From Dokdonella koreensis DS-123 (GTDB lineage: Bacteria; Pseudomonadota; Gammaproteobacteria; Xanthomonadales; Rhodanobacteraceae), in the NCBI RefSeq assembly GCF_001632775.1, contig NZ_CP015249.1:3762686-3826685 (forward strand): a stretch of 64,000 bases of DNA, written 5' to 3'. A program made the position numbers and the translations under genes. Numbering within the stretch: position 1 is the first letter of the stretch; each line of letters starts with the position of its first letter. The notes under the pieces were generated by a model. That model ran no database searches and was not told the origin of the DNA. It was given only the letters and a program-made list of their open reading frames with translations. Shown here one piece after another: positions 10,939 to 30,300 of the stretch.

Positions 10939-10999
10939 GACGCCGGTGCTCCGGCCGAACCAGCCGTCACGCAGAACGAACGACGAAGGAGTACCCATT

Positions 11000-14029: not shown

Positions 14030-14359
14030 GGCAGGTGCGATACCGGTGTGCCGGTTCTGCGACGATCCGGCCACCCGGCCGGACCAAGCGCACCGATCCT
14101 GTGCATCGGATTCGAGACAGCTCAGGCCGATATGTCGGCGGGTTCTGCTGAAGCGGCCTGGATCCGGCCCCACACGAACTGTCCGCATCGGATCATCGCA
14201 CGAGCGGGTCGGCCCGAAGAGCGCGTTCCTGCGCATAAAGGCCTCTTGACGACGCCGTGTTCCCATTGATCGCCCGGGCGTTGCTGATGCATCCTGCGTG
14301 GATGCGGCCAGTCCGGCCGAATGACCACTCCGGCCAAGCCATTCGCAAGGAGTCAGGGA
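14030..14359. other. Intergenic region upstream of the BNR-repeat gene
   Basis: 330 bases in which I see no convincing gene. It contains GGATCCGGCC-type words shared with the flanks of the ybeY-tail repeats, and a CCGGCCGAATGACC stretch about 55 bases before the next start that may belong to a promoter. Neither is strong enough to call. Confidence 0.3.
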
Positions 14360-16468
14360 ATGAAGGTGCGAATCATAGTGATCGCAGCGATCGCATCGCT
14401 GATGACATGGAATGCCAATGCTGCGCCGTGGCGCCGCGTTCCGGTGCCCGGAGGCGCAATCGAGGATCTGGCAGTCCTCGCTGACGGACGGCTCTATGCC
14501 GGCACTACCGATGGCCTCTATCGCAGCGACGACGCCGGCGATCACTGGACGCGCGCGGAACTCATGCCCTCCTACAAGAAGTTCCACAAGGTCCACCCGG
14601 TCGACGGCTCAGGTGATCGGCTGGTCGCCTACACTGAAACGCTCGGCAGGTACGATTCGCTCGCGCTGGAGCTCAGTACCGACGGCGGCACCACATGGCG
14701 GGTGACGTTGTCGGATTCATTGTTCTGGGGTAACACAGGCACATCTGCGGGCCGGTTTATCAGCCACCCGGTCAATCGCGATGTCATCCTCTTCGCGGAG
14801 TACGTAAGGCTCCGACGCTCCGAAGACGGCGGCCAGACCTGGCGGACGGTCGATGACCGTTCTAACTGGAGCGAGCTCTTCGCGATTCCCGATGCCGTGG
14901 GCCGTTTCGTGGCGCATTCGCCAGGTGTGAATCTTCAGTTCCTTGAATCGACCGACGGCGGGCTGACCTGGATCTTGCACGACTTGACGCCGCCGCTCCG
15001 GCGCCATGGACGGGCTCATGTCGTGCAGGATGCGCTCCAGCCCGAGCGCCTCTATTTCTCGATTTTTCGGGCCTATATCGACGGCAATGAAGTATCGACC
15101 AGCGGCTGGGTCGACACCCGGGACTGGTCGGTCACGTTGTTTTCGGACCCCTGTGACTGTCATCGCCGCGTGGTCCCCGATCCGCATCGGCCCGGGCGCC
15201 TTCTCGCACCGTCCACGACTCTCGCGCCGGATACGGCGGCGATCACGGGCTACCCGATCCGCGAGAGCCTGGACGGTGGCGCGACGTGGCAGACGCTTTC
15301 CAGCCTGGAGCGGCAGATCGACACGGAGTTTCGCCTCGTCTTCGATCCGTCGACGCCTGGACGCAGCTACATGCCGAGCCTGGGCGCCGGCGTCTATCGT
15401 TCCGACGACGGCGGCATCACGTGGAATCCCCACCACGCCGGCATGACCGGCGGCACGATTCTGAATGTGTCCGTCAATCCGAGCGATCCTGCCGAGTTCG
15501 TGGTGGCTCGCCGGCTCCTGCCCATGCTGCATACCAAGGACGGTGGCACCAGCTTCCAGGCGGTCGAAGCCGACTTCTACAGTGAACTCTACTCCGCCCA
15601 TCCGCAGAGGATCGCGCGATCACGTGCCGACCACAGGCTGATGATCGGCTACGGCACGGAATCGTTCTACAAAAGTCAGGATGGTGGCGTGACATGGACG
15701 CCGCTGGCGTCCGACTATCCTTTCGATGCCAACGTACCCAATTCGATCACCTTCATAGGTGATGATTCCACCCACCTCGTTACCTTCACGTACGCCCCGG
15801 AAAGCAGGATGACCTATTGGTCCAGCGATGGCGGCGCGCACTGGCTGCCGGTCGCCGTGCCGAATGATACGAATATGGCATTTCAAGACCTGCAGACACA
15901 CAGGGAAACGAACCGGGTCTATCTGGCCTACGAATATGGGGCGGTCACCCCGTATGGACTGCCCGGCTCGGGCGCGCTCTATCTGGCCAGCCAAGGCGCC
16001 GCCCTGCCGTTTCATCCCATAGCGGTTCCCACCGATTTCCCCGACGGTTCCTCCTGGGCGCCGTCTCGCCCCGATCCCAACAATTGGCGGCGTCGGCTGC
16101 TCAAGGAGTCCAACGTCTTACTCGGCGCAAACCCCGTTCGCACCTGGGAAACCACGGATGACGGCGCGAACTGGAAAATACTGGGTCCGGGGCCTATCAA
16201 CAGCTATAGCGGCGCGTGGTCAATCGATGCGTGCGACGGCCGCACCGTATGGGAGCCGAACAGCGGCTCCATTTCACGCGACAATGGCCTGACGTTCCGC
16301 AGCGATGTCGATGCGACGCCGACAAAGCTTGGCCGATTCGAGAATTTGTGCCTGGACGGAAAGACTCATGCGGTCGCGGTGATGGGCGAAGGCGGCCTCG
16401 GAGCCGGACTCCTGATACGCGAACCCGAGGCGGGGGATACGCTCTTGCGGGAGGCGTTCGATCCCTGA
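14360..16468 (+). CDS. Secreted BNR/sialidase-like repeat protein
   Basis: A 702 aa exported beta-propeller. The signal peptide is KVRIIVIAAIASLMTWNANA; AAGGAG lies nine bases before ATG 14360, which supports this start. At least seven Asp-box/BNR-type units recur: SDDAGDHWTRA, STDGGTTWRVT, SEDGGQTWRTV, STDGGLTWILH, SLDGGATWQTL, SDDGGITWNPH, SQDGGVTWTPL, SSDGGAHWLPV and TTDDGANWKIL. This pattern occurs in sialidases, Vps10-like and xyloglucanase-type propellers; no catalytic Arg triad or acidic pair can be fixed, so a binding role is equally possible. It ends DTLLREAFDP, a diverged version of the acidic-Phe tail. Local GC is lower than in neighbours. Confidence 0.85.
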   Translation: MKVRIIVIAAIASLMTWNANAAPWRRVPVPGGAIEDLAVLADGRLYAGTTDGLYRSDDAGDHWTRAELMPSYKKFHKVHPVDGSGDRLVAYTETLGRYDSLALELSTDGGTTWRVTLSDSLFWGNTGTSAGRFISHPVNRDVILFAEYVRLRRSEDGGQTWRTVDDRSNWSELFAIPDAVGRFVAHSPGVNLQFLESTDGGLTWILHDLTPPLRRHGRAHVVQDALQPERLYFSIFRAYIDGNEVSTSGWVDTRDWSVTLFSDPCDCHRRVVPDPHRPGRLLAPSTTLAPDTAAITGYPIRESLDGGATWQTLSSLERQIDTEFRLVFDPSTPGRSYMPSLGAGVYRSDDGGITWNPHHAGMTGGTILNVSVNPSDPAEFVVARRLLPMLHTKDGGTSFQAVEADFYSELYSAHPQRIARSRADHRLMIGYGTESFYKSQDGGVTWTPLASDYPFDANVPNSITFIGDDSTHLVTFTYAPESRMTYWSSDGGAHWLPVAVPNDTNMAFQDLQTHRETNRVYLAYEYGAVTPYGLPGSGALYLASQGAALPFHPIAVPTDFPDGSSWAPSRPDPNNWRRRLLKESNVLLGANPVRTWETTDDGANWKILGPGPINSYSGAWSIDACDGRTVWEPNSGSISRDNGLTFRSDVDATPTKLGRFENLCLDGKTHAVAVMGEGGLGAGLLIREPEAGDTLLREAFDP

Positions 16469-16550
16469 GAGCGGAACCGGGAACGCCGCGGCGGGCAGCA
16501 CTGCGCATCAGCAGGAACGAATCGGACCGTCTGTCCGATGTCGCTGCGAT

Positions 16551-16880
16551 TTACTCGCTCGCCAGGGTCAACAAGTCCCATTCGCGGCGAGCCCGGTGCG
16601 CGATGAGTCTGATCCAGGGATCCAGCCTCCCCAGGTCCTCATCGCGCCCTGAATCGATGCCTGATTCGATCTTGTGGACGATAGCGCGAGCGAGGGCGTC
16701 CCCATAGCATGTCCAGGGTCCCGTCGGCACGAATGCCACGCCCTGCCCCTTGGGTTCGAGCGTGAGGATGCCGATCGTCTCCAATGCAAGGGTGTCGGAA
16801 AACTCCCTGGTCTCGCAGGAAAGAACGAGACGACCGGGGCTGCTCTCCCGTTCGTGGAATACGATCTTGCTCACGCTCAT
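16551..16880 (-). CDS. Small hypothetical protein
   Basis: A 109 aa protein that I do not recognise. It reads as a compact soluble domain: strands VSKIVFHERE and GRLVLSCETREF, a second strand pair ending GPWTCYGDALARAIVHKIESG, and a C-terminal helix DPWIRLIAHRARREWDLLTLA. No signal peptide or membrane segment is seen. Only a weak GAGGG precedes the ATG. It is the best coding candidate in the 646 bases between the BNR gene and the S41 peptidase gene and has the same lower GC as the BNR gene. It could be a lineage-specific or acquired gene. Confidence 0.5.
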   Translation of the reverse strand: MSVSKIVFHERESSPGRLVLSCETREFSDTLALETIGILTLEPKGQGVAFVPTGPWTCYGDALARAIVHKIESGIDSGRDEDLGRLDPWIRLIAHRARREWDLLTLASE

Positions 16881-17114
16881 GACGGGAAAACCCTCGAACC
16901 GGATCTGGTTTCCCTATCATCACCCCTCTTCAGCGGTCGCGACGAAGGCCCGGCGGCAAGGCTTGCCTATCGCTGAGCAACTGGTCGGTTCAGGCACGGC
17001 GTAGTCGTAACAGAATTCGCTGCCGCCATCTGGCGAAGGCGGGATTGCTTGGCGCACCATCCTCAGGACCCGCTCACCCTGGAAATCCAAGCGCCAGCGA
17101 TGGGCGCTGGATGA

Positions 17115-18248
17115 TCAGCCCTTGACCAACGCCAACGCCCGTTCGAGCGCCGCGTCGGCGGGCACTTCGATGTCGGGGACGATGCCGGTCCCCTCCCAGT
17201 CCTTGCCGGTATCCGGATCGTACGTGCGCCCCACCGGAACGAACGCGACCAGCCCCGCGCCGATCGGTTCGATGCCACCGAAATGGTTGGCGCCCGCGGT
17301 GCGCTCGCCGATCAGCGTGGCGCGATGCGTGCGTTGCAGCGCCAGTGCGAAGTGCTCGCCCGCCGAGCGCGTGCGCCTGGACGTCAGGTAGAACACCTTG
17401 GCCTTGGCGAGCCGGTGCTCGGTGGCATCGGGAACGGCCACGTGCTGGCGCACCCGCAGACCGGCGGGACCGGGCACCTCGCGCAGGGTGGCGCCGCCCA
17501 TTGGCACCGGACCACCGGTCTTGGCCACGGCCATCTCGACCAGCACGGTTTCGCGCTCGAAAAGATACGGGAACAGCACGTCCATCTCGGCCAGCCCGCC
17601 GCCGCGCGACAAGGTCCGCGTATCGATGATGATCGCCTTGGCGGTCACGTAGTCCTTGACGAACGCCCGCATCGCCGCGACAGAGGCCGGTTCGCCCGCG
17701 AACTGGTTGAAGCGGATGTAGGCCACGCCATCCGCGATCCACTTCGTCTCGGCGACGCTCGGCAGGTCGGTCGGCGCGCGCGCTGACACCAGCGGCGGCG
17801 CCCCGCCGGGCGCTGCCAGGCGCGGCAGTGCTTCATTGAAATGCCGGCCCGGTGGCGGTGCGCCTTCGATGCGGCGCGGACCACCGGGTCCCGGGCCGCT
17901 CGGCACGCCGGATTCGGGCGCAGGATCGACACGCAGATGGCCGTCGGGCGCGACGGCCTGCAGGTCCTGCGTCAGGCGCTGTGCCATGGCCTTGGCGTCA
18001 CCGATGTCCTCGTACTTCCCCGCGGCGAGATTGGCACGCAGCATCTGGGCGTACCGCTGGCCTGCAGCCGGATCGACGAAGCGAGTCGCCAGCGTATCGG
18101 CCAGCCTATTGATCGCCTCCGCGTAGGTATCGGCTGCATCGGCTCCGAATGCCGGCGAGGCCGCCACGCCGAGTGCGGCCAGGCCGATGCCCAGCAGCCG
18201 GTGACGCAAGGCGTGGGGTGAACCGGACGTCGTCTCGTGCGTGTGCAT
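17115..18248 (-). CDS. Exported S41 family (C-terminal-processing-like) peptidase
   Basis: A 377 aa exported serine peptidase of the tail-specific/interphotoreceptor-retinoid-binding family. A signal peptide (HRLLGIGLAALGVAASPAFG) is followed by a helical N-terminal region and the S41 domain. AIIIDTRTLSRGGGLAEMDVL is the core strand, and VFYLTSRRTRSAGEHFALAL contains the nucleophile Ser (SAGEHFA). VGRTYDPDTGKDWEGTGIVPDIEV is the usual final motif. No PDZ domain is visible, as in the non-PDZ S41 branch. ATG 18248 was chosen for the signal peptide and an upstream GAAGG. The gene is divergent from the CHAT gene across 212 bases. Confidence 0.9.
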   Translation of the reverse strand: MHTHETTSGSPHALRHRLLGIGLAALGVAASPAFGADAADTYAEAINRLADTLATRFVDPAAGQRYAQMLRANLAAGKYEDIGDAKAMAQRLTQDLQAVAPDGHLRVDPAPESGVPSGPGPGGPRRIEGAPPPGRHFNEALPRLAAPGGAPPLVSARAPTDLPSVAETKWIADGVAYIRFNQFAGEPASVAAMRAFVKDYVTAKAIIIDTRTLSRGGGLAEMDVLFPYLFERETVLVEMAVAKTGGPVPMGGATLREVPGPAGLRVRQHVAVPDATEHRLAKAKVFYLTSRRTRSAGEHFALALQRTHRATLIGERTAGANHFGGIEPIGAGLVAFVPVGRTYDPDTGKDWEGTGIVPDIEVPADAALERALALVKG

Positions 18249-18460
18249 GGCTGGCCTTCGCGAGGGGATCGGGTTCTCGCTACAGATGCCGAGCGTGGCG
18301 GAAAGGTCGCAAGAGCTCCGGACCAGCAGGCGGGGCGGAGGCGAAAGCGCGCACCTTACGCCCGGATCGGGACAGGTCAATCGCGGTTCCTCGGGCGGCC
18401 GCATCCGGGCTGTGTCGACAGGTCATAACGCCGCCGCTCGAACAGGTGGACAATGCCCCC

Positions 18461-21400
18461 ATGCGCCCGGCCCGCCTACCCGTGCACTGCCTCGTGTCCG
18501 CCGTACTGGCCGCCTCGGCGGGGCCATCGGTAGCGGCGGCGGCTTCGCTGCAGCCCGGTCAGTCCACCTCGGTCACGCTCCCTGCCGGCGGCAGTTCCTA
18601 CGCCCTCGATGTCCCTGCACTGCAGGCCGCGGAACTCCATTTCACCCAGACCGGTGGCGCCATCGAAGTCCAGCTGCAGTCGCCGGCCGGCGAGACGGTC
18701 ACCCTGCGCAACGACGCCGGCCAGGCCAGCCGGATCGACCATGTGCTCTCCGCCGGCACCGAACCGGCGCGCTGGACGCTGACGCTGACCTCGACCCGTA
18801 CGGACCGGCCAGCCACGGTGGAGGTGGCGTTTTCTCCGGGGCAGCCGGTCACACCCGCGCTCGCCGCGCGCGCGAAGTCGCAACGCCTGCTGGCGGAGGC
18901 CGAAGCACTGCGCCGCGCGGCAGGCAGCCTGGAGGCCGGCACTGCCGCGGACAGTGCCGCGGTCGATGCACGCTACGCGCAGGCGCTGGCGGAGGCCGCC
19001 GCGGATGACTGCCTGGCCTTGCGGATCGGCACGGGCCGTGCGCGACACCACTTTGCGCAGGGACGCTACCGCGAGGCCCGGCAGGCGGCCGAGGCCGCAC
19101 TGGCGACGGCCTGCGACGACGGCCTGGCCGGTGATGCGGAGCGCGCCGCCGCGTTGCGCACGCGCGGGGCGGCGCTGGGCTATCTCGGGGACTTCACCGG
19201 GGCGGTGGCGGACCAGGGAGCGGCGCTGGCGCTGTACCGCCGCACCGGGGACCTGGCCTACCAGGCCCTGCTGCTGGTCAACCTCAGCGCCAACTACCGT
19301 TCGCTGGGCGATACCGAACAGGCGCTCGCCACGGCGCATCAGGCCCTCGCCGCGGCGGAGCGCGCGGGCGATGCCAGGCGGGCGGTGTTCGCGCAGGAAA
19401 GCATCGCGGCGATCCGCCTGCAGCGCGGCGAGCTGGGACCGGCGCTTTCGGCGTACCGGCTGACGCTGGATGCGCTCGAGGCGACGCCGTATCCGCGCGT
19501 GGAAGGCATGACCTGGAACGATCTGGGCGTGCTCTACCGGCAAACCGGCGACCGCGCCGCAGCGCGCGATGCGCTCGGCCGGGCCGCGGCGGTGTGGCGC
19601 GCGAGCGGCGACACCTCGGGTCTGGCCGAGGTGCAGCTGAATCTCGCCGACCTGGACCTCGACGAAGGAAAACTCGACGCGGCCTGGCAGGGTTATCGCG
19701 CGGCGCTCGACTTCGATCGTGCGCAGGGCTTTCGCCGCGAGGAGGCGCACGCGCGGATCGGCCTGGGCAGTGTGGCCGCACTGCGCGGCGAGGACGCCGA
19801 GGCGCGCACGCACCTGGAGGCCGCCGCCGCACTGGCCGAGTCGATCGGCGCGAGCGCGAACGCCGTGGCCGCACGGCTCGCGCTGGCGGACCTCGCCCTG
19901 CGCGGCGGCGATCGCGAGGACGCGGCACGCGCGATCGCCAGGGCGCTCGACCAGGCACGGCGCGGACGCGACGTGTCCGGCGAGGCGCAGGCGCTGATCC
20001 TGCGCGGACGCGCCTCGCAGGCCGCGGGCGATCTCGCCGCCGCGCAGGCGGCCGTGCTGCCGGCACTGGACCTGATCGAGGGCGCCCGCGGCGCGATCGA
20101 TCCACCGATGCTGCGCAGCCGCTACTTCGCGACGCGGCGCGATGCCTATGACCTGGCCGTCGACATCCTGATGCAGCGTCACGCCGCGCAGCCGGACGGC
20201 GACTACGCGACGCAGGCGCTGGTGGTCAGCGAACGCGCACGGGCACGCGCGCTGCAGGACCGCCTGGCCGAGCGGCGGCTGGCGCTGCCGCACACGGTGG
20301 ACCTGGCACTGCTGGATGCCGAGCGCACGGCCGAACTGGCGGTGCGGCAGGCCGCGGCGGCCGGCGGCGCGGTGCTGGCCGAGGCACAGCAGGCACTGGA
20401 CGCGGTGCGTGGCCGGATCCGTGCACAGAGCCCGCGCTACGCCGAGCTGGCGCATCCGCCGCAGCCGACGGCCGACACGCTCCGGCTGGCCGTGCGCGAC
20501 AGCGGCGTGGTGGCCGACAGCTGGTGGCTGGCCGAGCCGCGCAGCTATCGCTGGCGCGTGACGGCAGCCGGCCTGACGGCGGCGACGCTGCCGGGTCGCG
20601 ACGCGATCGAGCAGGCGGCACGCACGCTGCGCGAGCGCCTGGCGGCGCCCCCGGCGGTGGCGGCAACGCTGCCGATCGAGCGGCTCGCCGCGCAGGATGC
20701 GGCGCAGGCGGCCGACGTCGACACCACGGCGCGCGCGCTGGCGAGGCTGCTGGACCTGCCCGACGCGGCGGCGGATGCCCTGCGCGTCACCGTGCCGGAC
20801 GGTGCGCTGGCGTGGATTCCGTTCGCGCTGCTGGAACCGGACAGCACGCGTGGCCGCGTCTACCTGCCGGCGCTGTCGGCGCTGCACGGCATCCGCGCGA
20901 TCGCGCGCAGCGGTGCACCGGAGGCCGTGGTGGTCATCGCCGACCCGGTGCTGCGCGCGGACGATCCGCGCCTGCCTAAGCCGGGCCGGGCGGCGGCGGA
21001 CGCGCCGGTGCCGCTGCCGGCCGCACGGGACGAGGCGCGCGCACTCCTGGCGCTGGCGGACCGCGGCACCTCCCGCTGGATCGACGGCTTCGCCGCCAGC
21101 CGTACTACGCTCGCGGCGCTGCCGTGGAGCCGCTACGGCACGGTGCATTTCGCGACCCACGCGCACCTGGACGCCACGCGGCCGGCGCTGTCGGCGATCG
21201 CGCTGTCCGCCTACGATGCCGCCGGCCGGCCCCAGCAGGGCGACCTGCGTGCCGACGACCTCTACACGCTGGACATGCCGGTGGACCTGGTGGTCCTCGG
21301 CGCCTGCGACGGCGCGCTCGGCGAGGCGCCGGGTGCGGAAGGGCCATTCAGCCTGGCACGGGCGTTCTTCCACGCCGGCGCAGGCCGCGTGATGGCCAGC

Positions 21401-21583
21401 CTGTGGGCGGTGGACGACCGCGCCGGCGCGACGCTGATGGGCCACTTCTACGAGGGCCTGCTGCGCCACGGCCTGTTGCCGCCGCAGGCGCTCAAACGTG
21501 CGCAGGACAGACTGCGCGCCGAGCCGCGCTGGGCGGCGCCGTACTATTGGGCCGGCTACGTGCTGCAGGGGGACTGGCGATGA
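18461..21583 (+). CDS. Exported TPR-CHAT caspase-like protease
   Basis: A 1040 aa protein. A signal peptide (VHCLVSAVLAASAGPSVAAA) and a beta-rich region (residues about 30-130) are followed by many tetratricopeptide repeats (about 190-620; for example RTRGAALGYLGDFTGAVADQ and WNDLGVLYRQTGDRAAARDA). A C-terminal CHAT domain (about 740-1040) has both catalytic residues: His 900 in VHFATHAH and Cys 949 in LVVLGACDGA. It should therefore cleave proteins after recognition through the TPRs. The next gene, a sigma factor, overlaps it by ATGA, and an anti-sigma-like membrane protein follows. A signal peptide puts the protease outside the cytoplasm. ATG 18461 is chosen for the signal peptide; no clear ribosome site is seen. 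Confidence 0.9.
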   Translation: MRPARLPVHCLVSAVLAASAGPSVAAAASLQPGQSTSVTLPAGGSSYALDVPALQAAELHFTQTGGAIEVQLQSPAGETVTLRNDAGQASRIDHVLSAGTEPARWTLTLTSTRTDRPATVEVAFSPGQPVTPALAARAKSQRLLAEAEALRRAAGSLEAGTAADSAAVDARYAQALAEAAADDCLALRIGTGRARHHFAQGRYREARQAAEAALATACDDGLAGDAERAAALRTRGAALGYLGDFTGAVADQGAALALYRRTGDLAYQALLLVNLSANYRSLGDTEQALATAHQALAAAERAGDARRAVFAQESIAAIRLQRGELGPALSAYRLTLDALEATPYPRVEGMTWNDLGVLYRQTGDRAAARDALGRAAAVWRASGDTSGLAEVQLNLADLDLDEGKLDAAWQGYRAALDFDRAQGFRREEAHARIGLGSVAALRGEDAEARTHLEAAAALAESIGASANAVAARLALADLALRGGDREDAARAIARALDQARRGRDVSGEAQALILRGRASQAAGDLAAAQAAVLPALDLIEGARGAIDPPMLRSRYFATRRDAYDLAVDILMQRHAAQPDGDYATQALVVSERARARALQDRLAERRLALPHTVDLALLDAERTAELAVRQAAAAGGAVLAEAQQALDAVRGRIRAQSPRYAELAHPPQPTADTLRLAVRDSGVVADSWWLAEPRSYRWRVTAAGLTAATLPGRDAIEQAARTLRERLAAPPAVAATLPIERLAAQDAAQAADVDTTARALARLLDLPDAAADALRVTVPDGALAWIPFALLEPDSTRGRVYLPALSALHGIRAIARSGAPEAVVVIADPVLRADDPRLPKPGRAAADAPVPLPAARDEARALLALADRGTSRWIDGFAASRTTLAALPWSRYGTVHFATHAHLDATRPALSAIALSAYDAAGRPQQGDLRADDLYTLDMPVDLVVLGACDGALGEAPGAEGPFSLARAFFHAGAGRVMASLWAVDDRAGATLMGHFYEGLLRHGLLPPQALKRAQDRLRAEPRWAAPYYWAGYVLQGDWR

Positions 21584-22146
21584 ACGAGGCGAACGATCCG
21601 CTGCGCGCGCTGCTGGCGCACCTGGACGGTGGCCGCGGCGCGGCGGCGGCCTACGAGGCGTTGCGCCGACGGCTGATCGCGTTCTTCCGCCTGCACCTGC
21701 CGGCCCAGGCAGACGACCTGGCCGATGTCGCGCTCGACCGCCTCGGCCGGCGCCTGGCCGAGGGCGTGGCGGTAGAGGACACCGGCGGCTACGCGCTCGG
21801 CATCGCCCGCTTCCTGGTCCGCGAGGCACACGGGCAGGCAGCGCGGGCCGCGCGCGCGCAGGACGATCCGTCCCTGCAGCCGCCGGACCCGGATGCGGAC
21901 GCCGCTGCCGACGCGCTCCAGTTCGAAGCCGTACTGGCCGCACTGGATACCTGCCTGGACGCCGCCGGCCCGGCGCAGGGCCGGCTGATCCTGGACTACT
22001 ACGGCGCCGACGGCGGCGAACGCATCGCCCTGCGCCAGCGGCTGGCGGCCGCACTCGGCATCAGCCTCAACGCATTGCGCAACCGTGCGCTGCGCCTGCG
22101 CGAGGCGCTGGAAGCCTGCGTACGCGGCCGGCTGCTGCCCGGCTGA
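21580..22146 (+). CDS. ECF-like RNA polymerase sigma factor
   Basis: A 188 aa protein with the length and layout of an extracytoplasmic-function sigma factor. Region 2 is helical (AAYEALRRRLIAFFRLHLPAQ, ADDLADVALDRLGRRLAEG), a linker rich in Asp/Pro follows, and region 4 (RIALRQRLAAALGISLNALR then NRALRLREALEACVR) looks like a helix-turn-helix. Sequence conservation to classical ECF groups is low, so this is an inference from size, layout and context. It overlaps the CHAT gene stop by ATGA. The anti-sigma-like gene follows after 227 bases. It probably directs transcription of a small set of nearby genes. Confidence 0.72.
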   Translation: MNEANDPLRALLAHLDGGRGAAAAYEALRRRLIAFFRLHLPAQADDLADVALDRLGRRLAEGVAVEDTGGYALGIARFLVREAHGQAARAARAQDDPSLQPPDPDADAAADALQFEAVLAALDTCLDAAGPAQGRLILDYYGADGGERIALRQRLAAALGISLNALRNRALRLREALEACVRGRLLPG

Positions 22147-22318
22147 GCGACCGCCGGCCATCGGGCGCGCCATCGCCGAGCGCACTCATTCCGGAATCCG
22201 CGCCTCGCCGGCCCACGGACAGGCGGAGGAAGAAACCCGTTGCCGACCGGCGGAGGAAGCCTCGGATGCCGGCCATCGGGACGAACTCCATCGGACGAAT
22301 CGGCATGCGTCGCCCACC

Positions 22319-22355
22319 AGCGTGATGTTTCGGCCGTTCGTCTCACTCCAGACAA
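22319..22355 (+). promoter_or_regulatory. Shared upstream element, copy 1 (before the anti-sigma-like gene)
   Basis: The block GCGTGATGTTTCGGCCGTTCG followed by TCTCACTCCAGAC lies about 20-55 bases before the ATG at 22374. A closely matching block is found at 23184-23220 before the S53 peptidase gene. Both begin GCGTGATG and share TTCGGCCG, TTCG and CTCAC at nearly the same spacing. It may be a promoter read by the neighbouring ECF-like sigma factor; this is inference from two copies. Confidence 0.4.
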
Positions 22356-22373
22356 ACCCCGCTCCTGCCAGAG

Positions 22374-23117
22374 ATGACCCCGCCCACCCCCGCCACCCTG
22401 CGTGACTGGCTGCTGCACCGCCTGCCCGATGCCGCGCGCGCGGCGCTGGAGGAGCGGCTGCTGCGCGAGGATGCGCTGGTGGCGCAGCTGCGCGAGGCGG
22501 AAACCGACCTGATCGACGATCACGCTGCCGGGCGGCTGGATGCCGCCACGCAGGCGGACGTGGCGCGCCACCTGATCGCCGACCGGGACGGGCACTGGCG
22601 CTGGCAGGTGGCACGCGCGCTGGCCGTCAAGCGCGCCGCGCGCCGGGTGGCGGAGGCAGGCGAACCGCGACGCCGCTGGGTTGCGGCGCGCCCGCGCCTG
22701 GCCGCGATCGGTGCGCTGGCCGCGGTGCTCGTGCTGGCAGTGCTGCTGGTGCGGCCGCCACTGCCGTCGCGACCGCCGGCCGATGCGGCGACGCTGCCCA
22801 CCGTCAGCCTGCGCGTAGCAGCGACGCGCGGGACGGCATCGGCGCTGACGCTGCCGCCGAACACGGGCTGGCTGCGGCTGCAGGTCGAGGCGATCGATCC
22901 ACAGCCGCGCCGCTACGCGGTGTCGATCAGCGACGGCGCGACGGTGCGGTTCCACGCCGGTGGCCTGACGCTGCGGCGGGCGGGACCGTACGCGTTCGTC
23001 GAGGTGGTGATCCCGGCGGCGGCGGCCGGCCCCGGCCACCGCACGGTGCGCCTGCTGCCGGAAGGGGCACCGACGGCCGCGGCGACCGCCTGGGAGCTGG
23101 ACACCACCGTGCCGTGA
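22374..23117 (+). CDS. Membrane-anchored anti-sigma-like protein
   Basis: A 247 aa single-pass membrane protein. Residues 1-100 are cytoplasmic and helical (TPATLRDWLLHRLPDAARAA, LREAETDLIDDHAAGRLDAA, RHLIADRDGHWRWQVARALA), like the sigma-binding ends of anti-sigma factors, but without the HxxxCxxC zinc motif. One membrane helix lies at about 107-126 (LAAIGALAAVLVLAVLLV). The remaining 120 residues are a beta-rich exported domain (TLPTVSLRVAATRGTASALT). The ATG follows CAGAG closely. Its place behind the sigma gene suggests it holds that sigma at the membrane. The exported domain would then be a possible target for the exported CHAT protease or for a signal. Confidence 0.65.
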   Translation: MTPPTPATLRDWLLHRLPDAARAALEERLLREDALVAQLREAETDLIDDHAAGRLDAATQADVARHLIADRDGHWRWQVARALAVKRAARRVAEAGEPRRRWVAARPRLAAIGALAAVLVLAVLLVRPPLPSRPPADAATLPTVSLRVAATRGTASALTLPPNTGWLRLQVEAIDPQPRRYAVSISDGATVRFHAGGLTLRRAGPYAFVEVVIPAAAAGPGHRTVRLLPEGAPTAAATAWELDTTVP

Positions 23118-23183
23118 GCGCGGGCTCATAGCCGGGACGGCACCCCGGCCGATGCACCCGAACACGGGCGGTCCGCGCCGGCC

Positions 23184-23220
23184 CGCGTGATGCTTCGGCC
23201 GATTCGCTCACCTGGAATAC
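23184..23220 (+). promoter_or_regulatory. Shared upstream element, copy 2 (before the S53 peptidase gene)
   Basis: GCGTGATGCTTCGGCCGATTCG followed by CTCACCTGG begins about 73 bases before the S53 start and matches the element at 22319-22355. Conservation outside coding sequence between two unrelated neighbouring genes argues for a common regulator. Confidence 0.4.
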
Positions 23221-23256
23221 GGCGCGGCGCATCCGCTGCGCGTCCCGGAGGCGATC

Positions 23257-26200
23257 ATGGTGCGCACATCGGTTCATTCCACAGCCCGAGCGGCTGCGGC
23301 CTGCCTGGGCTGGCTGCTCGGCCTGGCAGCGCTGCTGCCGGCATCGGCGCTGGCGGCAAGCGAGAAGACGCCGCTGGCCGGCCACGTGCTGCCGGCACTG
23401 GCCCAGGCCGAGCGCCTGCCGGCAGCGCAGGCGGCGGCGCTCGACGAGGCGATGACCGTGACCGTGGTGATGCGGCGCACGGACCCGGCCGGCTTCGACC
23501 GCTATCTCGCCGCCGCCTACGATCCGGCCTCGCCGCAGTACCGCCGCTTCCTGACGCCGGCGGACCTGGCCGAGCGCTTCGGGCCGAGCGCGCAGGCCTA
23601 TGCGCAGGTGCGCGACTACTTCACCGCGCAGGGCCTGCAGGTGACGGCCGAATCGGCCAACCGGATGACACTGACGCTGAGCGGCGCACGCACCGCCGTG
23701 GCCCAGGCGCTGGACGTGGCGATCGAGGCCTACGCGCTGCCGGGTACGGCCGAGCGCTTCCTCGCCAACACCGGCGAGCCGGCATTGCCGGCGGCGATCG
23801 CGCCGCACGTACAGTCGATCGCGGGCCTGTCCACGCTGGCACAGGTGCGGCGCCTGCCGGCACCGCTGTTCGTCGGCAACTGGGGGTACAACTGCGCCGG
23901 CAACAGCGGCCTGGACCCGTACACCAAGACGTTCTGCTACGGCGTCTACAAGGATGCGCTGGGCCTGCACAACGGCATCTGCAGCAATCCGCTCGGCATC
24001 CTGCTGACGCTGTTCCTGTGCAAGGTGGTACCGATCCTGGCCGCGCCGATGGACTTGCCGGCAACGCCGCCGCTGGCGGCGGCCGGCGGCGCGCCGCTGC
24101 CGGGCAGCGGCCAGACCGTGGGCCTGGTGCAGTTCGACAACTTCCACGTGTCGGACATCCGCGACTTCCTGGACCTGATCGGCGCGCCGGCCGGCCAGCT
24201 CGGCCAGTTGTCCAGCGTGGCCGTCAACGGCGGCGCGGCGATCGGCGCGAACGAGGACGAGGTGCTGCTCGACATCAGCGTGGTGATGGCCATCGCACCG
24301 GGGGCGAACGTCACCGTCTACAGCGCGCCGTTCACCGGTGCCGGCAGCTTCCAGGCGCTGTTCAACCGCATGATCGGCGATGGCGTGACGGTCATCTCCA
24401 ACAGCTGGGCCTATTGCGAGGACCAGACCACACTGGCCGACGTGCAGGGCATCGACGCGATCCTGGCCGGCGCGGCGGCGGCCGGCGTCAGCGTGTTCAA
24501 CGCATCGGGCGATACCGGCAGCACCTGCCTCGACGGCTCGCCGAACACGATCACCGTGCCGGCCGGCTCGCCGCACGGCACGGCGGTCGGCGGCACCTCG
24601 GCGCTGGCCGGCCCGGGCGGCACCTATGCCAGCGCCACCTGGTGGGGTGCCGGCGGCAGCGCCGGCCACAGCCAGGGCGGCTATGGCGTCAGCCGCTTCT
24701 TCGCGCGGCCGGCCTACCAGAACGGCCTGAGCGCGTCGGCGATGCGTTCGGTGCCGGACCTGGCCGTCAATGCCGATCCGGTCACCAGCGGCGTACCGAT
24801 CTGCCAGGCCAGCCGCGGCGGCTGCCCGAGCGGCCTGCTGTACGGCGGCACCAGCATGTCGGCACCGCTGATGGCCGCGTTCGCGGCCACGCTGAACCAG
24901 GCGCAGGGCCAGAATCTCGGGTTGTTCAACGCGCATGCCTATCCGCTGGCGAATACCGCCGCGTTCCACGGGGCGGCCGAGCTGGCCAGCGACTTCGCGC
25001 ACGTGGGCCTGGGCGCGCCGAACCTGAGCGTGCTGAACCTGGCCCTGGCCGGGCAGGCGCCGGGACCGGCCAGCGCGGCGGCGTCGCGCCTGATCGCCGA
25101 TCCGCCGACCGGCATCGCCGATGGGGCGACGCCGACCGCCGTCGTGGTGCAGCTGCGTGACGCGGCCGGCAGCACGGTCAGCGGGCGACGCGTCAGCCTG
25201 TCCGCACCGCCGGGCGCCGGCGTGGTCATCACACCGGCTGCGGCGGTCACCACCGGGATCGCCAACGGCACGGCGACGTTCGCGGTGACGCGAGCGACGG
25301 TCGGTACCGTGATGCTGACCGCACGCGCGGTCGACGACGGCTTCGACATCGGCACCGGACTGGCCGTGGACTTCGTCGCACCACCGGCGACGGCGGCGAG
25401 CATCCTGGCATTCCCGACCGCCGTCACCGCCGATGGCGTCGCCACGACCACGATCACCGTGACACTGCGCGACGCGGCCAGCCGCCCCACGCCCGGCAAG
25501 CGCATCGTGCTGTCGCAGGGCCAGGGCCGCTCGGCGGTGGCCGGCCCGAACCCGCCGCTCACCGACGCCAACGGCGAGATCCGCTTCACCGCGACCAACC
25601 GGGTCGAGGAAACCGTCACCTATACCGCGGTGGACGAGACCGACGGCGACCTGCCGGTACCGGGCATGGCGGCCGTGCAGTTCAGCAATGCGATCGGTTC
25701 CTGCGTGACGGCACCGGAGGCGCGGCCCGGCCATGCGCTGGCCGCGTTCGCCAACGGCTTCGCCGCGTACCCGTTCTTCTACGGCAACGTCAACTGGGGC
25801 TGCGCCGGCGCGTCGAATCCCGCGTTCAGCGCAACCGGCGACGCGTACGTCGCGCATTTCCAGAGCGGCGACCTGTACCGCCTGCGCGATACCGGCGGCG
25901 CCGCGGTCGGGCCGTTGTCGAATCTCGGTGTCACGCTCGGCAAGCCGGTGTTCGGCAAGGACGGCAAGCTCTACGCGACGCGCGGCGTCACCGGCGCCTC
26001 GTTCGGCAGCGGCGACATCATCGAGATCGACCCGGCCAGCGGCGCGCTGCTGCGGATCGTCGCCGGCAGCCTCACCTGCCCGCATGGCCTGGCGACCGAC
26101 CCGCTCAGCGGCGACCTCTTCTTCGACAACAGCTGCACCGGCGCCGGCTCGGACAACCCCTCGCTGTACCGGCTGACCGATCCGGGCGACACCGACCCGG

Positions 26201-27264
26201 CACGGCCGACCGCGGTCACCGTCTACGCGACGCTGCCGAGCACGCCGAACGGCCTGATCGCGATCGCGCCGAACGGCACGCTGTACGTGGCGACCGCCTA
26301 CACCACCTTCCCGCACTCGCCGCTGGTCGAGGTCAGCGGCACCGACCGGCCGCAGCCGGCGACCGTGACCACGGTGCCGGGCTTCGACTCGTACTACTGG
26401 ATCAACATCGGCGAGGCCGGACCGGACGGCGCGGCGCGCTCGCTGCTGGTCTGGAACGAGCCGGACACGCTGTACCTCGTCGACCTGACCACCTCGCCGG
26501 TCACGCGCACCCCGCTCGCCGACCACCTCGGCACCGGCACGATCGGCGCGGACGGCTGCCTCTACTCGAGCACCGCAGACGCGGTACACAAGCTGACGCC
26601 GGTCTCCGGCAGCTGCGACTTCGCCAGCAGCAACCCGACGCCGTCGCTGGCGCTCGATCCGCGCCTGACCGCACCGGATCCGGCGCAGGGCACGACGCTG
26701 ACGCTGCGCGCGACGGTGGGCCACGCAACGGTGCCGGCCGGCACGGCGGTGCGCTTCCTGATCGAGGGCGCCAATCCACAGCTGCGCCTGGCGCGCACCG
26801 ATGCAGACGGCACGGCGACGCTGGTCCATACCGGCACCTTCGCCGGCAGCGACGTCGTCACTGCCCTGCTGCGGACCGACACGCTGGACCTGACGTCCAA
26901 CCCGGCACGCGTGACCTGGGCACCGGGCCGCCACGCGAGCTTTCTCGCCCTGACCGGCACGCAAGGCGCGATCGCCGCCCGGCCGACGACGCTGACGGCA
27001 CGCTTGGTCGATACCGCGGTCGCGCCGCAGGCGCCGATCGTCGGCGCGACGGTGGCCTTCACGGTCGGCGCCGCCGGCTGCAGCGGCACTACCGACGCCC
27101 AGGGCATCGCACGCTGCACGGTCACGCTGCCACTGCCCGGCACCTACACGCTGAGCGCCGGCTACGCTGGCAATGCCACCGTGCTGCCGGCACAGGCGAC
27201 GCGGCCGTTCACGGTGACCGCGGCGATCGACCGGATCTTCGCCGACGACTTCGAGGCCGACTAG
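23257..27264 (+). CDS. Secreted S53 (sedolisin/kumamolisin-like) peptidase, multidomain
   Basis: A 1335 aa exported serine-carboxyl peptidase. The signal peptide is ACLGWLLGLAALLPASALAA. A pro-kumamolisin activation domain (residues about 55-195: FDRYLAAAYDPASPQYRRFL, LTPADLAERFGP) is followed by the S53 catalytic domain (about 280-580) with Glu335 and Asp339 in E-VLL-D and Ser533 in GGTSMSAP. Two Ig/invasin-like domains (about 610-815), a six-bladed NHL/SMP-30-like propeller (about 820-1130) and another Ig-like pair come next. The tail IFADDFEAD fits the shared C-terminal motif. CGGAGG precedes ATG 23257. The family works at acidic pH, so it likely digests extracellular protein. Confidence 0.92.
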   Translation: MVRTSVHSTARAAAACLGWLLGLAALLPASALAASEKTPLAGHVLPALAQAERLPAAQAAALDEAMTVTVVMRRTDPAGFDRYLAAAYDPASPQYRRFLTPADLAERFGPSAQAYAQVRDYFTAQGLQVTAESANRMTLTLSGARTAVAQALDVAIEAYALPGTAERFLANTGEPALPAAIAPHVQSIAGLSTLAQVRRLPAPLFVGNWGYNCAGNSGLDPYTKTFCYGVYKDALGLHNGICSNPLGILLTLFLCKVVPILAAPMDLPATPPLAAAGGAPLPGSGQTVGLVQFDNFHVSDIRDFLDLIGAPAGQLGQLSSVAVNGGAAIGANEDEVLLDISVVMAIAPGANVTVYSAPFTGAGSFQALFNRMIGDGVTVISNSWAYCEDQTTLADVQGIDAILAGAAAAGVSVFNASGDTGSTCLDGSPNTITVPAGSPHGTAVGGTSALAGPGGTYASATWWGAGGSAGHSQGGYGVSRFFARPAYQNGLSASAMRSVPDLAVNADPVTSGVPICQASRGGCPSGLLYGGTSMSAPLMAAFAATLNQAQGQNLGLFNAHAYPLANTAAFHGAAELASDFAHVGLGAPNLSVLNLALAGQAPGPASAAASRLIADPPTGIADGATPTAVVVQLRDAAGSTVSGRRVSLSAPPGAGVVITPAAAVTTGIANGTATFAVTRATVGTVMLTARAVDDGFDIGTGLAVDFVAPPATAASILAFPTAVTADGVATTTITVTLRDAASRPTPGKRIVLSQGQGRSAVAGPNPPLTDANGEIRFTATNRVEETVTYTAVDETDGDLPVPGMAAVQFSNAIGSCVTAPEARPGHALAAFANGFAAYPFFYGNVNWGCAGASNPAFSATGDAYVAHFQSGDLYRLRDTGGAAVGPLSNLGVTLGKPVFGKDGKLYATRGVTGASFGSGDIIEIDPASGALLRIVAGSLTCPHGLATDPLSGDLFFDNSCTGAGSDNPSLYRLTDPGDTDPARPTAVTVYATLPSTPNGLIAIAPNGTLYVATAYTTFPHSPLVEVSGTDRPQPATVTTVPGFDSYYWINIGEAGPDGAARSLLVWNEPDTLYLVDLTTSPVTRTPLADHLGTGTIGADGCLYSSTADAVHKLTPVSGSCDFASSNPTPSLALDPRLTAPDPAQGTTLTLRATVGHATVPAGTAVRFLIEGANPQLRLARTDADGTATLVHTGTFAGSDVVTALLRTDTLDLTSNPARVTWAPGRHASFLALTGTQGAIAARPTTLTARLVDTAVAPQAPIVGATVAFTVGAAGCSGTTDAQGIARCTVTLPLPGTYTLSAGYAGNATVLPAQATRPFTVTAAIDRIFADDFEAD

Positions 27265-27286
27265 CCGGCGGCCGAGGCCTGCGGAC

Positions 27287-27314
27287 GCGCGCGATCCCTC
27301 GCCGGATCGCGCGC
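27287..27314. terminator. Bidirectional hairpin between convergent genes
   Basis: A perfect 11-bp stem (GCGCGCGATCC, loop CTCGCC) in the 79-base gap between the S53 and SNF2 genes, which face each other. No U-tract is present, so termination may be weak or factor-assisted. Confidence 0.55.
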
Positions 27315-27343
27315 ATTGCGCCGCCGGCCGGGGAGCTGCCGCG

Positions 27344-30300
27344 TCATTCGGGCGCGAGCGGCGCGAACAGCTCGGCCAGGTCGGTCTCGTCCAGGTGCAG
27401 CGCGCCGGTGCCGGTGCCTTCCAGCACGGCATCGGCCAGCCCGGCCTTGCGTGCCTGCAGGGCCTGGATCTTCTCCTCGACGGTGCCGGCACAGATCAGC
27501 TTGTAGACGAAGACCGGCTTGTCCTGGCCGATGCGGTGCGCACGGTCGGTGGCCTGCGCCTCGACGGCCGGGTTCCACCACGGGTCGTAGTGGATCACCG
27601 CGTCGGCAGCCGTGAGGTTGAGGCCGGTGCCGCCGGCCTTGAGGCTGATCAGGAACACCGGCGCCTCGCCGTCCTGGAAGCGGCGCACGAGATCCGCGCG
27701 CGCGCCGCCGGGGGTCTGGCCGGTCAGCATCAGGTGGTCGACGCCGCGCTGGTCGAGCGCTTCGGCGATCAGGGTCAGCATCTGCGCGAACTGCGAGAAC
27801 ACCAGGATGCGGCGACCTTCGCCGATCAGCGTGTCGAGCCGCTCCAGCAGTGCCTCGAGCTTGGCCGAATCCGGCGCCTGGCGCGCGCTGTCGAGCTTGA
27901 CCAGGCGCGGGTCGCAGCACACCTGCCGCAGCTTGAGCAGGGCGTCGATGACGACGATGCCCGACTGCGCCAGGCCACGCTCGCGCATCGCCTCGCGCAC
28001 GCGCTCGTGCTGGGCCAGGCGCAGCGTCTCGTAGAGTTCGCGCTGGGCGCCCTCCAGCTCCAGGCGCTGCACGATCTCGGTCTTCTCGGGAAGCTCGGTC
28101 AGCACGTCTTCCTTGCGCCGGCGCAGCAGCAGCGGCGCGATGCGGCGCGACAGGCGCTGGCCGCGCTCGGCGTCGGCATGCTTCTCGATCGGCACGCGGT
28201 AGAAGCGCGCGAACTGGCGCTCGCTGCCGAGGAGGCCCGGCTCGACCGCATCGAACAGCGCCCACAGCTCGCCGAGGTGGTTTTCCAGCGGCGTGCCGGT
28301 CATCGCCAGGCGCCGCCGTGCGGGAATCTCGCGCACCACCTGGGCGGCCTGGCTGCGCGCATTCTTGACCGACTGCGCCTCGTCCAGGATCAGCAGGGCG
28401 AACGCGGTGGCCGCCAGGCGCTCGCGGTCGCGCGGCAGCAACGGGTAGGTGGTGATGACCAGGTCGTGCCCGGCGATCGCCTCGTAGGCGCGCGCGCGGT
28501 CGGCACCGTGCAGGGTCAGCACCGACAGCGACGGCGCGAACCGGCGGGCCTCGTCCTGCCAGTTGCCGATCAGGCTGGTCGGCGCGACGACGAGCGCCGG
28601 TGCATCGAGCCGGCCGCGCGCCTTCTCGTCCAGCAGATGCGCCAGCACCTGGACGGTCTTGCCCAGGCCCATGTCGTCGGCCAGCACGCCGCCGAGGCCC
28701 GCGTCGGCCAGGAAGCCGAGCCAGGCCAGGCCCTCGCGCTGGTACTCGCGCAGCACGGCCTGCAGTCCGGCCGGCGGTTCGCCGACGCGGCGCGCCCCCT
28801 TCAACGCGTCCAGGTTCGCACGCAGGCGGGCGGCACCGGCCCAGACCAGGCCGGCTTCGTCGCCGGCCGCGAGCAGGCTGGTGGCGGCGCTGCGGTGCAC
28901 GCTGAGGCGCTCGCCGCGGTCGGCGTCGATCCATTCGAGCAGCGGGCCGACCAGCGCACGCACGCGCGCCAGCGGCAGTTCCACGCTGCGCCGCTCGTCG
29001 ATCGGCACGCGCAACGCCGCATCGCGGCGCTCGCCGCGGCGCGGGACCAGCGAAAAGCGCGGGTCGGTCAGCAGGCGCCGCAGGATCGGCAGCAGGTCCA
29101 CGCGTTCGCCGCCGACGTCGATGCCGAGCGCGACGTCGAACCACGGCGTATTGGTTTCGGCCAGGTCGGCATGCCAGTCGTCGATGTCGATCAGCTCGTC
29201 GCGCGGGAAGCCGTCGGCATAGACGATGCGCACGCCCTGCTCGACCAACTGCTTGACGACCGGCTTCCAGGCATCGGGCGCCAGCGGCGGGCGCTGCTCG
29301 GCCGGCTGCAGCAGGAAGTCGGCCTGCGCGCCGTCGTCGGCGTGCCCACCGGCCGCGGCGAGGTCCGCCTCGACCAGACCGATCTGCTCGAGCAGGTCCA
29401 GCACCTGCCGCTCGTGCGCGCGATCGCGCTGGATCTCGACCAGGTCGCCCTCGTGCAGCAGGCGCGTCGTCGCGGCTGCCGCCGGCGGCACGCGCACGCC
29501 GGCGTAATCGAACGCCAGCCGCGCACAGCCGGCGGTGATGGTGCGCAGGCGCAGTGCCTGGCGCCACGGCACCTCGACCGGCCGCAAGGTCAGCTCGGGG
29601 ACCGGCACCGCCTCGATGTGGCGTACCGTGCGGACCACCGGTGCCGGCAGCGCGGCGGCGGCCGGCCGCCCGCCGAGGGTGCGCCGCACCGCCTCGGCAC
29701 TCTCCGGCGCGACGCGCGGCGCGCCCTGCACGAGGTCGATCCAGGCCGGCGAGGCCTGCACCGGACCGAACCGACGCACCTCCGGCAGGAAATACCACAG
29801 CCCGGCGCCGCGCAGCAGCGCGGCCGGCTCGGTGCCGTCGATGCCGATGTCGAGCACCTGGCTGCCGTCGGCCTGGTCCTTCCAGGCCAGCGCGGGCTTG
29901 ACCGGATCGGCCAGGGTCCAGGCACCTCCCGCCGGCTTCTCCACGTAGACGCGGTGGCGCCGGGCCAGATCGGCCACGGCCTGCTCCAGCGCGCGCGTGT
30001 CGATCGGGACGAACGAGCCGTGGCGGCCCTCGCTGCGCCCGAGCAGCAGACCGAGCGCGACCGCATCGGCCACCGGCCAGCCGCCGGCCGGCGCCGGCAC
30101 CGGTCCACCGATGTCCAGCACCAGCGGCTGCGGATCGACCAGGCCGCTGCTGCGGCTCTTCGCCGGCCGCAGCCAGACCGGCGCGGCTTCCAGGCGCGGC
30201 TGGCGCGGCGCGGAGATGCCCCGCAGCAGCAGGGCGAAGACGCGGTCCGGCTCGGCGACGGCCGCGGCGTGCTCGTCGTCGATGGTCTCCAGGCGATGCA

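What the first reader, a model, noticed from the sequence alone, without database searches (positions are those of the whole stretch)
18461..27264. Candidate protease-gated sigma switch: TPR-CHAT, ECF-like sigma, membrane anti-sigma-like protein, S53 protease
The sequence shows an exported TPR-CHAT protease with both catalytic residues (His900, Cys949), overlapping by ATGA a sigma-like gene. A single-pass protein follows with a helical cytoplasmic part and a beta-rich exported part, then a secreted S53 protease. Established: TPR-CHAT cleaves Csx30 and releases a sigma factor in the type III-E CRISPR (Craspase) system. Inference: here a CRISPR-free version may act across the membrane, with the CHAT protease cutting the exported part of the anti-sigma-like protein to free the sigma. 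The S53 protease would be a target gene.
Basis: partly seen in the sequence, partly recalled or inferred. Interest (0 to 1): 0.78.

Follow-up and report, generated by a model that had tools for sequence, protein, structure and literature searches.

The report
Exported caspase-like protease with sigma switch
A bacterium carries a compact gene set in which an apparently exported caspase-like protease, a transcription (sigma) factor and its probable membrane-bound inhibitor are inherited together, and a shared DNA start signal suggests that the set switches on the inhibitor and a secreted enzyme; it resembles a CRISPR-free cousin of a protease-controlled immune switch.

Summary
In detail: TPR-CHAT (18461-21583), ECF-type sigma (21580-22146), single-pass anti-sigma-like protein (22374-23117) and S53 peptidase (23257-27264). 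Order and strand of CHAT, sigma and anti are kept in 10 of 10 loci with this sigma, with a 4-nt CHAT/sigma overlap in 9 of 10. Sigma (9 of 233 family genomes) and anti (9 of 230) occur in the same nine; close CHAT orthologues in those nine plus one cut by its contig end. New: a promoter-like element, CGTGAT(G/A)-N16-CA(C/T), faces the anti gene in 9 of 10 loci and a neighbouring secreted-protein gene in 10 of 10, and occurs nowhere else in those stretches. The regulon therefore looks small and local: inhibitor plus secreted effector (S53, or a giant transglutaminase-like protein). That CHAT cuts the inhibitor's exported domain is plausible but untested. A CHAT-ECF link is in print (ECF54), described without an anti-sigma; CHAT with a membrane anti-sigma and a promoter-defined effector is a new variant.

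The parts
18461..21583 (+). TPR-CHAT caspase-like protease: signal-peptide-like N-terminus, N-terminal part, TPRs, CHAT domain with His900/Cys949
   Evidence: Pfam CHAT 6.3e-48; His900 and Cys949 invariant in 9 of 9 aligned; hydrophobic N-terminus
21580..22146 (+). ECF-type sigma factor, 188 aa, overlaps the CHAT gene by 4 nt
   Evidence: TIGR02989 1.9e-9, 10 of 10 members match; fold search finds sigma factors, mostly ECF, at weak E-values
22321..22346 (+). promoter-like element CGTGATG-N16-CAC before the anti-sigma-like gene, 27 nt from its ATG
22374..23117 (+). single-pass anti-sigma-like protein, 247 aa: helical N-terminal domain, TM-like stretch from 103, exported Ig-like domain
   Evidence: model; hydropathy; family profile retrieves anti-sigmas downstream of sigma genes; NF052375 antisigma in 6 of 10 rows
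23186..23211 (+). promoter-like element CGTGATG-N16-CAC before the S53 gene, 45 nt from its ATG
23257..27264 (+). secreted-type S53 (kumamolisin-like) peptidase with Ig-like domains; probable target gene
   Evidence: Pfam Pro-kuma_activ 3.7e-24, Big_1 1.2e-27; motifs

Best explanation
An envelope-signalling switch. The CHAT-sigma operon is made from another promoter (no copy of the element faces it). The sigma is held at the inner membrane by the 247-aa protein. When the exported TPR-CHAT protein, whose N-terminal and TPR parts would sense a periplasmic cue or partner, becomes active, it cuts the Ig-like exported domain of the anti-sigma (site 1); an M50 (RseP-type) protease, present in the genome, would finish the release. 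Freed sigma then reads CGTGATR-N16-CAY and switches on mainly two local genes: its own inhibitor (negative feedback) and a large secreted enzyme. Shown here by sequence: the module, its co-inheritance, sigma and anti-sigma family evidence, the promoter-like elements. Inferred: that this sigma reads the element, the binding, the cut, its place, the cue, and the location of CHAT.
For: Order kept 10 of 10; 4-nt overlap 9 of 10; sigma in 9 of 233 and anti in 9 of 230 family genomes, the same nine; CHAT orthologues with E<1e-100 in those nine plus G132, whose contig stops there. His900/Cys949 invariant 9 of 9. Element 19 times in 233,648 bp of 11 loci, all 19 facing the anti gene or the neighbouring secreted-protein gene; over the ten loci with this sigma (213,648 bp) 20 Markov resamples gave 1.75 on average, 4 at most; spacers 10-15 and 17-23 give 0-4 hits each against 19 for 16 (window cut to 17000-29000 for that count). 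Longer form CGTGATG-N10-TTCGCYCAC: 7 exact matches in 230 genomes, 6 at this module in six genomes. G132, not used to derive it, has the element before an S53 gene divergent from CHAT. The core stays when the effector changes. CHAT also lies beside sigma/anti in L040 and, with another sigma type, in L108. M50 protease in the genome.
Against: No cleavage, binding or expression data. Export of CHAT rests on hydropathy (5 of 9 over threshold). The anti model matched only Ig-like and other beta folds in the PDB rows shown, no anti-sigma; single-protein family matches are weak (window protein: antisigma E 0.58). With one mismatch the longer form has 64 places in 55 of 230 genomes against 38 for the reversed control (my count of the rows), so only the exact matches and their place speak for it; how many control matches were exact is not given. 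G132 is of the same genus group (g8) as L029-L031, so its copy may be mere kinship; L030/L031, L027/L028 and window/L024 are near kin too: the ten loci stand for six genera. The element is absent from L040, and L013 has it only before S53. In the own genome 11 further exact CGTGATG-N16-CAC places exist; one (L084) lies 19 nt before a forward ORF by a crude gene call, so a third target is not excluded. The invariant Arg of the exported domain is also present in 2 CHAT-less anti-sigmas. The genome has two more CHAT genes, one with a sigma and a kinase, one without sigma neighbour.
Confidence: 0.5

Rival explanations
1. The sigma/anti-sigma pair works by itself: the Ig-like domain senses a ligand and an ordinary site-1 protease (DegS-like) makes the first cut. 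CHAT is co-transcribed but acts elsewhere in the periplasm.
For: In 3 of the 4 non-orthologous loci that the anti profile found (L109, L110, L111) a zf-HC2 anti-sigma follows a sigma gene and no CHAT match was seen in the 11-17 kb read.
Against: CHAT is coupled to the sigma gene by a 4-nt overlap in 9 of 10 loci and co-inherited; CHAT recurs beside sigma/anti in L040 and L108.
Confidence: 0.25
2. CHAT is a maturation protease for the secreted effector (for example the S53 pro-enzyme), and the sigma only raises its supply.
For: S53 carries a pro-domain and both proteins look exported.
Against: No copy of the element faces CHAT while the effector has one; CHAT stays when the effector is a transglutaminase-like protein.
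Confidence: 0.12
3. As proposed in print for group ECF54: no anti-sigma; the peptidases keep the sigma off by degrading it.
For: PMC8999054 section 3.3 (read) names CHAT, subtilase and carboxypeptidase genes around ECF54.
Against: Here an anti-sigma-like gene is present in 10 of 10 loci (frame-split in L024), CHAT and S53 look exported, and S53 has the same element as the anti gene, so it looks like an output.
Confidence: 0.06
4. A CRISPR-free anti-phage system of the Craspase sort.
For: TPR-CHAT plus sigma plus inhibitor is the Craspase output set (PMC10028731, passages and section 7 read); 7 of 10 sigma rows match the type III-E sigma model weakly, best E 0.0016.
Against: Parts look exported; secreted degradative effector; no PADLOC match at E<=0.01 among the four proteins except a TPR model for CHAT; no CRISPR-type direct repeats in 27 kb.
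Confidence: 0.05

Closest known systems
Type III-E CRISPR Craspase (Cas7-11/gRAMP, Csx29 TPR-CHAT, Csx30, CASP-sigma)
   Same: TPR-CHAT protease, ECF-type sigma and a sigma inhibitor encoded together; CASP-sigma motifs lie in its own locus (PMC10028731, passages). 7 of 10 sigma rows match NF041236 (III-E sigma), best E 0.0016
   Different: No CRISPR-type repeats in 27 kb (Cas7-11 not searched for); CHAT has a signal-peptide-like start; inhibitor looks like a membrane protein with an Ig-like exported domain; window proteins match NF041237 (Csx29) at E 0.2 and NF041236 at E 0.32 only
ECF54 sigma group (CHAT, subtilase and carboxypeptidase neighbours)
   Same: ECF sigma with CHAT and a subtilase-like peptidase nearby (PMC8999054, section 3.3)
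   Different: ECF54 is described there as acting without an anti-sigma; here one is present, without Zn motif or Pfam match, so easily missed; here S53 looks like an output
RseA-DegS-RseP / RpoE regulated intramembrane proteolysis
   Same: Proposed layout: membrane anti-sigma cut outside, then by an M50 protease (recalled; also summarised in PMC10028731)
   Different: The candidate site-1 protease is a caspase-fold cysteine protease encoded with the sigma instead of DegS; the regulon looks very small
Class I anti-sigma factors (ASDI; zf-HC2, RskA, RseA)
   Same: Helical N-terminal domain, TM, exported domain, gene next to an ECF sigma; the family profile retrieves zf-HC2 anti-sigmas
   Different: No HxxxCxxC in 10 of 10 rows; no anti-sigma among the PDB fold matches shown

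Membership tests
ECF sigma factor | sigma2-sigma4 sequence/fold | tested here: met
   TIGR02989 and TIGR02937 (sigma70-ECF) each matched by 10 of 10 rows at E<=0.1; top PDB fold matches are sigma factors, mostly ECF, with E 0.01-0.1 and none <=0.001. Against: no Pfam sigma domain, no NCBIfam cut-off reached by the window protein
ECF sigma factor | recognises a two-block promoter with fixed spacing before its targets | tested here: inconclusive
   fixed-spacing element found before likely targets; recognition by this sigma not tested
Class I anti-sigma factor (ASDI) | N-terminal three-helix bundle plus a further helix (PMC7406223, passages) | tested here: met
   helices 6-13, 19-31, 33-51, 57-66, 71-94; block pLDDT 83-96 up to residue 90, 66 for 91-100. 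Helix count only; no structural match to a known ASDI was obtained
Class I anti-sigma factor (ASDI) | sequence relationship to known anti-sigmas | tested here: met
   profile A3 hit 6 of 370 class genomes at E<=1e-5; own and G558 aside, 4 of 4 hits follow a gene with a Pfam sigma domain, 3 of 4 have zf-HC2 over its cut-off. The matches are partial (profile about 44-172) and weak (26-33 bits). Single-protein family matches are weak
Class I anti-sigma factor (ASDI) | binds and inhibits the cognate sigma | not testable with these tools
Type III-E Craspase | Cas7-11 (gRAMP) effector and CRISPR array | tested here: inconclusive
   no direct repeats of 23 nt or more within 120 nt in 9000-36000; the four module proteins gave no CRISPR-family match at E<=0.01; Cas7-11 was not searched for in the genome
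Type III-E Craspase | CHAT protease cuts the sigma inhibitor | not testable with these tools
   needs a protease assay
ECF54 | membership of the ECF54 sigma clade | not tested
   no ECF54 model or sequence at hand; the classification paper is not held
ECF54 | CHAT and subtilase-like genes next to the sigma, no anti-sigma | tested here: inconclusive
   CHAT and S53 present, but an anti-sigma-like gene is present too
S53 peptidase (kumamolisin) | pro-domain and S53 catalytic motifs | tested here: met
   PF09286 3.7e-24; GTSMSAP at 531, E335/D339 (motif meaning recalled)

The most novel reading that the evidence does not exclude
An exported bacterial caspase relative serves as the dedicated site-1 protease of an ECF sigma/anti-sigma pair: a chromosomal, CRISPR-free protease-sigma switch of the kind from which the type III-E Craspase output could have been assembled; the same family of zinc-less anti-sigmas may be the 'missing' anti-sigma of CHAT-linked groups such as ECF54, whose peptidase neighbours would then be outputs and not regulators.
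Probability: 0.35. Interest if true: 0.82.

Novelty: new variant of a known kind. Interest (0 to 1): 0.62.

Why it matters
What chromosomal TPR-CHAT proteases do is largely open outside Craspase and a few other cases (recalled). This locus gives a small system with named parts: protease, sigma, inhibitor, a distinctive promoter-like element to use as a reporter, and a secreted output. It makes the question 'do bacterial caspase relatives act as site-1 proteases in sigma signalling?' directly testable, and offers a candidate evolutionary source for the Craspase output module.

Tried and rejected
Element as a chance repeat: rejected. The first form of the pattern (TGATGYTTCGGCCGNTTCG, 3 mismatches) was too loose: 14 places against 26 for the reversed control. 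A wide regulon: not supported but not excluded. Exact CGTGATG-N16-CAC occurs 13 times in the own genome (reversed control 5); only the two at this locus end in CTCAC, two others end in GCCCAC, a form seen in relatives. By a crude gene call of the 11 others, one (L084, ending TTTCCAC) lies 19 nt before a forward ORF and one of the GCCCAC places (L080) is intergenic but next to a reverse ORF. The CGTGATA and CAT forms were not sought genome-wide. An invariant Arg in the exported domain as CHAT cut site: dropped as evidence, since CHAT-less L109 and L110 have an Arg there too. PDB sequence search with the sigma gave no hit at E<=1, with the anti only 6 chance-level hits, with CHAT only TPR proteins in the 60 rows shown of 65. 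Foldseek of the anti: the rows shown are Ig-like and other beta folds. Plasmid search for the sigma: no match. Genome searches score only part of the first-look candidates (for example 13, 11 and 3 per genome at most), so absences are not proof; weaker CHAT relatives (1e-24 to 1e-32) occur in further genomes (15 of 230 in all).

Literature, judged by listed titles and starts of abstracts unless said otherwise: one search found 1 paper with 'CHAT domain', 'anti-sigma factor' and 'extracytoplasmic function' (Craspase); others (9 papers; 2; 27, 20 listed; 1; 0; 1; 1) showed none on an exported CHAT with an ECF/anti-sigma pair, apart from the ECF54 remark in PMC8999054. Passages of PMC8103513 were seen and gave nothing on CHAT. 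The library lacks most subscription papers, among them the main ECF classification paper, so earlier mention cannot be excluded.
Full report
Observation. The CHAT gene's stop overlaps the sigma's start as ATGA; His900 and Cys949 are right when counted from 18461 and are invariant in 9 of 9 aligned orthologues. CHAT is certain. The sigma is weak for single-family models (TIGR02989 E 1.9e-9, below its cut-off; no Pfam sigma domain), but 10 of 10 family members match TIGR02989 and the general ECF model at E<=0.1. Its AlphaFold model (pLDDT 87.5, pTM 0.48) finds sigma factors first in the PDB, mostly ECF (1or7, 6dv9, 8z6g, 6dxo, 6in7) and one sigma32, with probabilities 0.95-1.0 in the first nine rows; E-values are 0.01-0.1, none is 0.001 or less, and full-length TM-scores are about 0.3.

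The module. Of 370 genomes of the class, one besides the window's own has one, G558. In all 10 loci with this sigma type that I read (window, L013, L024-L031) the order is CHAT, sigma, anti on one strand; CHAT and sigma overlap by 4 nt in 9 of 10 and are 158 nt apart in L029. The ten loci come from six genera. The anti profile hits 9 of 230 family genomes, the same nine as the sigma. CHAT orthologues with E<1e-100 are in those nine plus G132, whose contig ends just after the matched part; five more genomes have only weaker CHAT relatives. In more distant G558 the order is sigma, anti (348 aa), TPR-CHAT, secreted-type protein. In G345 a different sigma and an anti of this family stand divergently beside a TPR-CHAT gene.

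Is the 247-aa protein an anti-sigma? Its model has helices to residue 94, a membrane stretch, and an Ig-like sandwich. Its own database matches are poor (NF052375 'anti-sigma factor' in 6 of 10 rows, best 1.1e-4, window protein 0.58), and the fold search shows no anti-sigma. The stronger test is the reverse search: the family profile, run over 370 class genomes, gave 6 genomes at E<=1e-5. Apart from the window's own and G558, all 4 hits follow a gene for a protein with a Pfam sigma domain, and 3 of the 4 carry zf-HC2 above the cut-off; these matches are partial and of 26-33 bits. The family itself has no HxxxCxxC motif in 10 of 10 rows. Binding is untested.

The promoter-like element. Reading the gaps I saw the same block before the anti gene and the S53 gene. 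Comparison with the relatives gave CGTGAT(G/A), 16 free bases, CA(C/T). In 233,648 bp of 11 loci it occurs 19 times, always facing a gene of the module: the anti gene in 9 of the 10 loci with this sigma (not L013), and the neighbouring secreted-protein gene in 10 of 10, the loosest case being L026 (ATG 290 nt away). It does not occur in L040. In the 17 cases measured by script the element ends 7-74 nt before the start codon. Twenty Markov resamples of the ten loci give 1.75 hits on average, 4 at most; observed 19. Spacer 16 stands out against 0-4 hits for spacers 10-15 and 17-23. The element was derived from these loci, so tests outside them count more. Over 230 family genomes the longer form CGTGATG-N10-TTCGCYCAC has 7 exact matches, 6 at this module in six genomes and 1 elsewhere; with one mismatch there are 64 places in 55 genomes against 38 in the reversed control, by my count of the rows, so single-mismatch matches alone mean little. 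G132, not used to derive the element, has a copy before an S53 gene divergent from CHAT, but it is a genus-mate of L029-L031. In the own genome exact CGTGATG-N16-CAC occurs 13 times (control 5); of the 11 outside this locus one (L084) lies 19 nt before a forward ORF by a crude gene call, so a further target is possible. None of the 19 copies faces the CHAT gene. The layout (two blocks, fixed gap, close to the start, always facing the gene) is what an ECF promoter should look like (recalled), but that this sigma reads it is inference.

Outputs. The neighbouring target is an S53 peptidase in the window, L013, L024, L025, L029, L030, L031 and G132 (Pfam for the window, L013, L029 and G132; by tblastn for the others) and a giant secreted-type transglutaminase-like protein in L027 and L028 (both cut by the end of the stretch). 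In L026 it is unclear. The core of protease, sigma and inhibitor therefore stays while the output is exchanged, which argues against CHAT being merely a maturation factor for S53.

Mechanism. Best reading: exported CHAT senses a cue and makes the first cut in the anti-sigma's outer domain; an M50 protease (present) completes release; the sigma induces its inhibitor and the secreted enzyme. Everything after 'protease, sigma and inhibitor belong together' is inference. The export of CHAT rests on hydrophobic N-termini, 5 of 9 over the threshold used.

Known work. Craspase couples a TPR-CHAT protease, Csx30 and CASP-sigma (PMC10028731: passages and section 7 read). [quoted passage not shown] So the CHAT-ECF association is not new. 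New, as far as the searches named under Tried and rejected show, are the membrane anti-sigma in such a locus, the signal-peptide-bearing CHAT beside it, the element, and the view of the peptidase as an output. Class I anti-sigma features are from PMC7406223 (passages seen).

Host.

On re-reading the calls I added the reversed-control count, the kinship of G132, the further own-genome places, the limits of the fold and hydropathy results, the III-E sigma matches, and changed the CRISPR membership row to inconclusive.

Noticed in passing
L106:3489-9193 (same genome, about G000:C1:2553500-2559200): Second TPR-CHAT gene of the genome lies behind an ECF sigma (TIGR02984-like) and a Ser/Thr kinase gene; a large beta-helix protein gene precedes them. 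A third CHAT gene (L107:6508-9393) has no sigma neighbour in the ORFs listed.
   Followed up: partly
L108:3928-8649: In a distant gammaproteobacterial genome a TPR-CHAT gene stands divergent to a different sigma gene and an anti-sigma of the same family.
   Followed up: partly
L024 (G086), about 10209-11755 in the sigma-forward orientation: A 1.5-kb stretch without a called gene, with repeated phrases, lies between sigma and anti, and the anti gene is split between two frames.
   Followed up: no
18446-18463: GTGGACAATGCC(C/G)CCATG just before the CHAT gene is shared with L024 and may hold a -10 box or an earlier start codon of the CHAT-sigma operon.
   Followed up: no
L084:1501-1526 (own genome): A further exact CGTGATG-N16-CAC place lies 19 nt before a forward ORF by a crude gene call; possible extra target.
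   Followed up: no
14321-18404: Neighbours: a BNR/sortilin-like repeat protein (+) and an S41 peptidase (-); no copy of the element lies there.
   Followed up: partly
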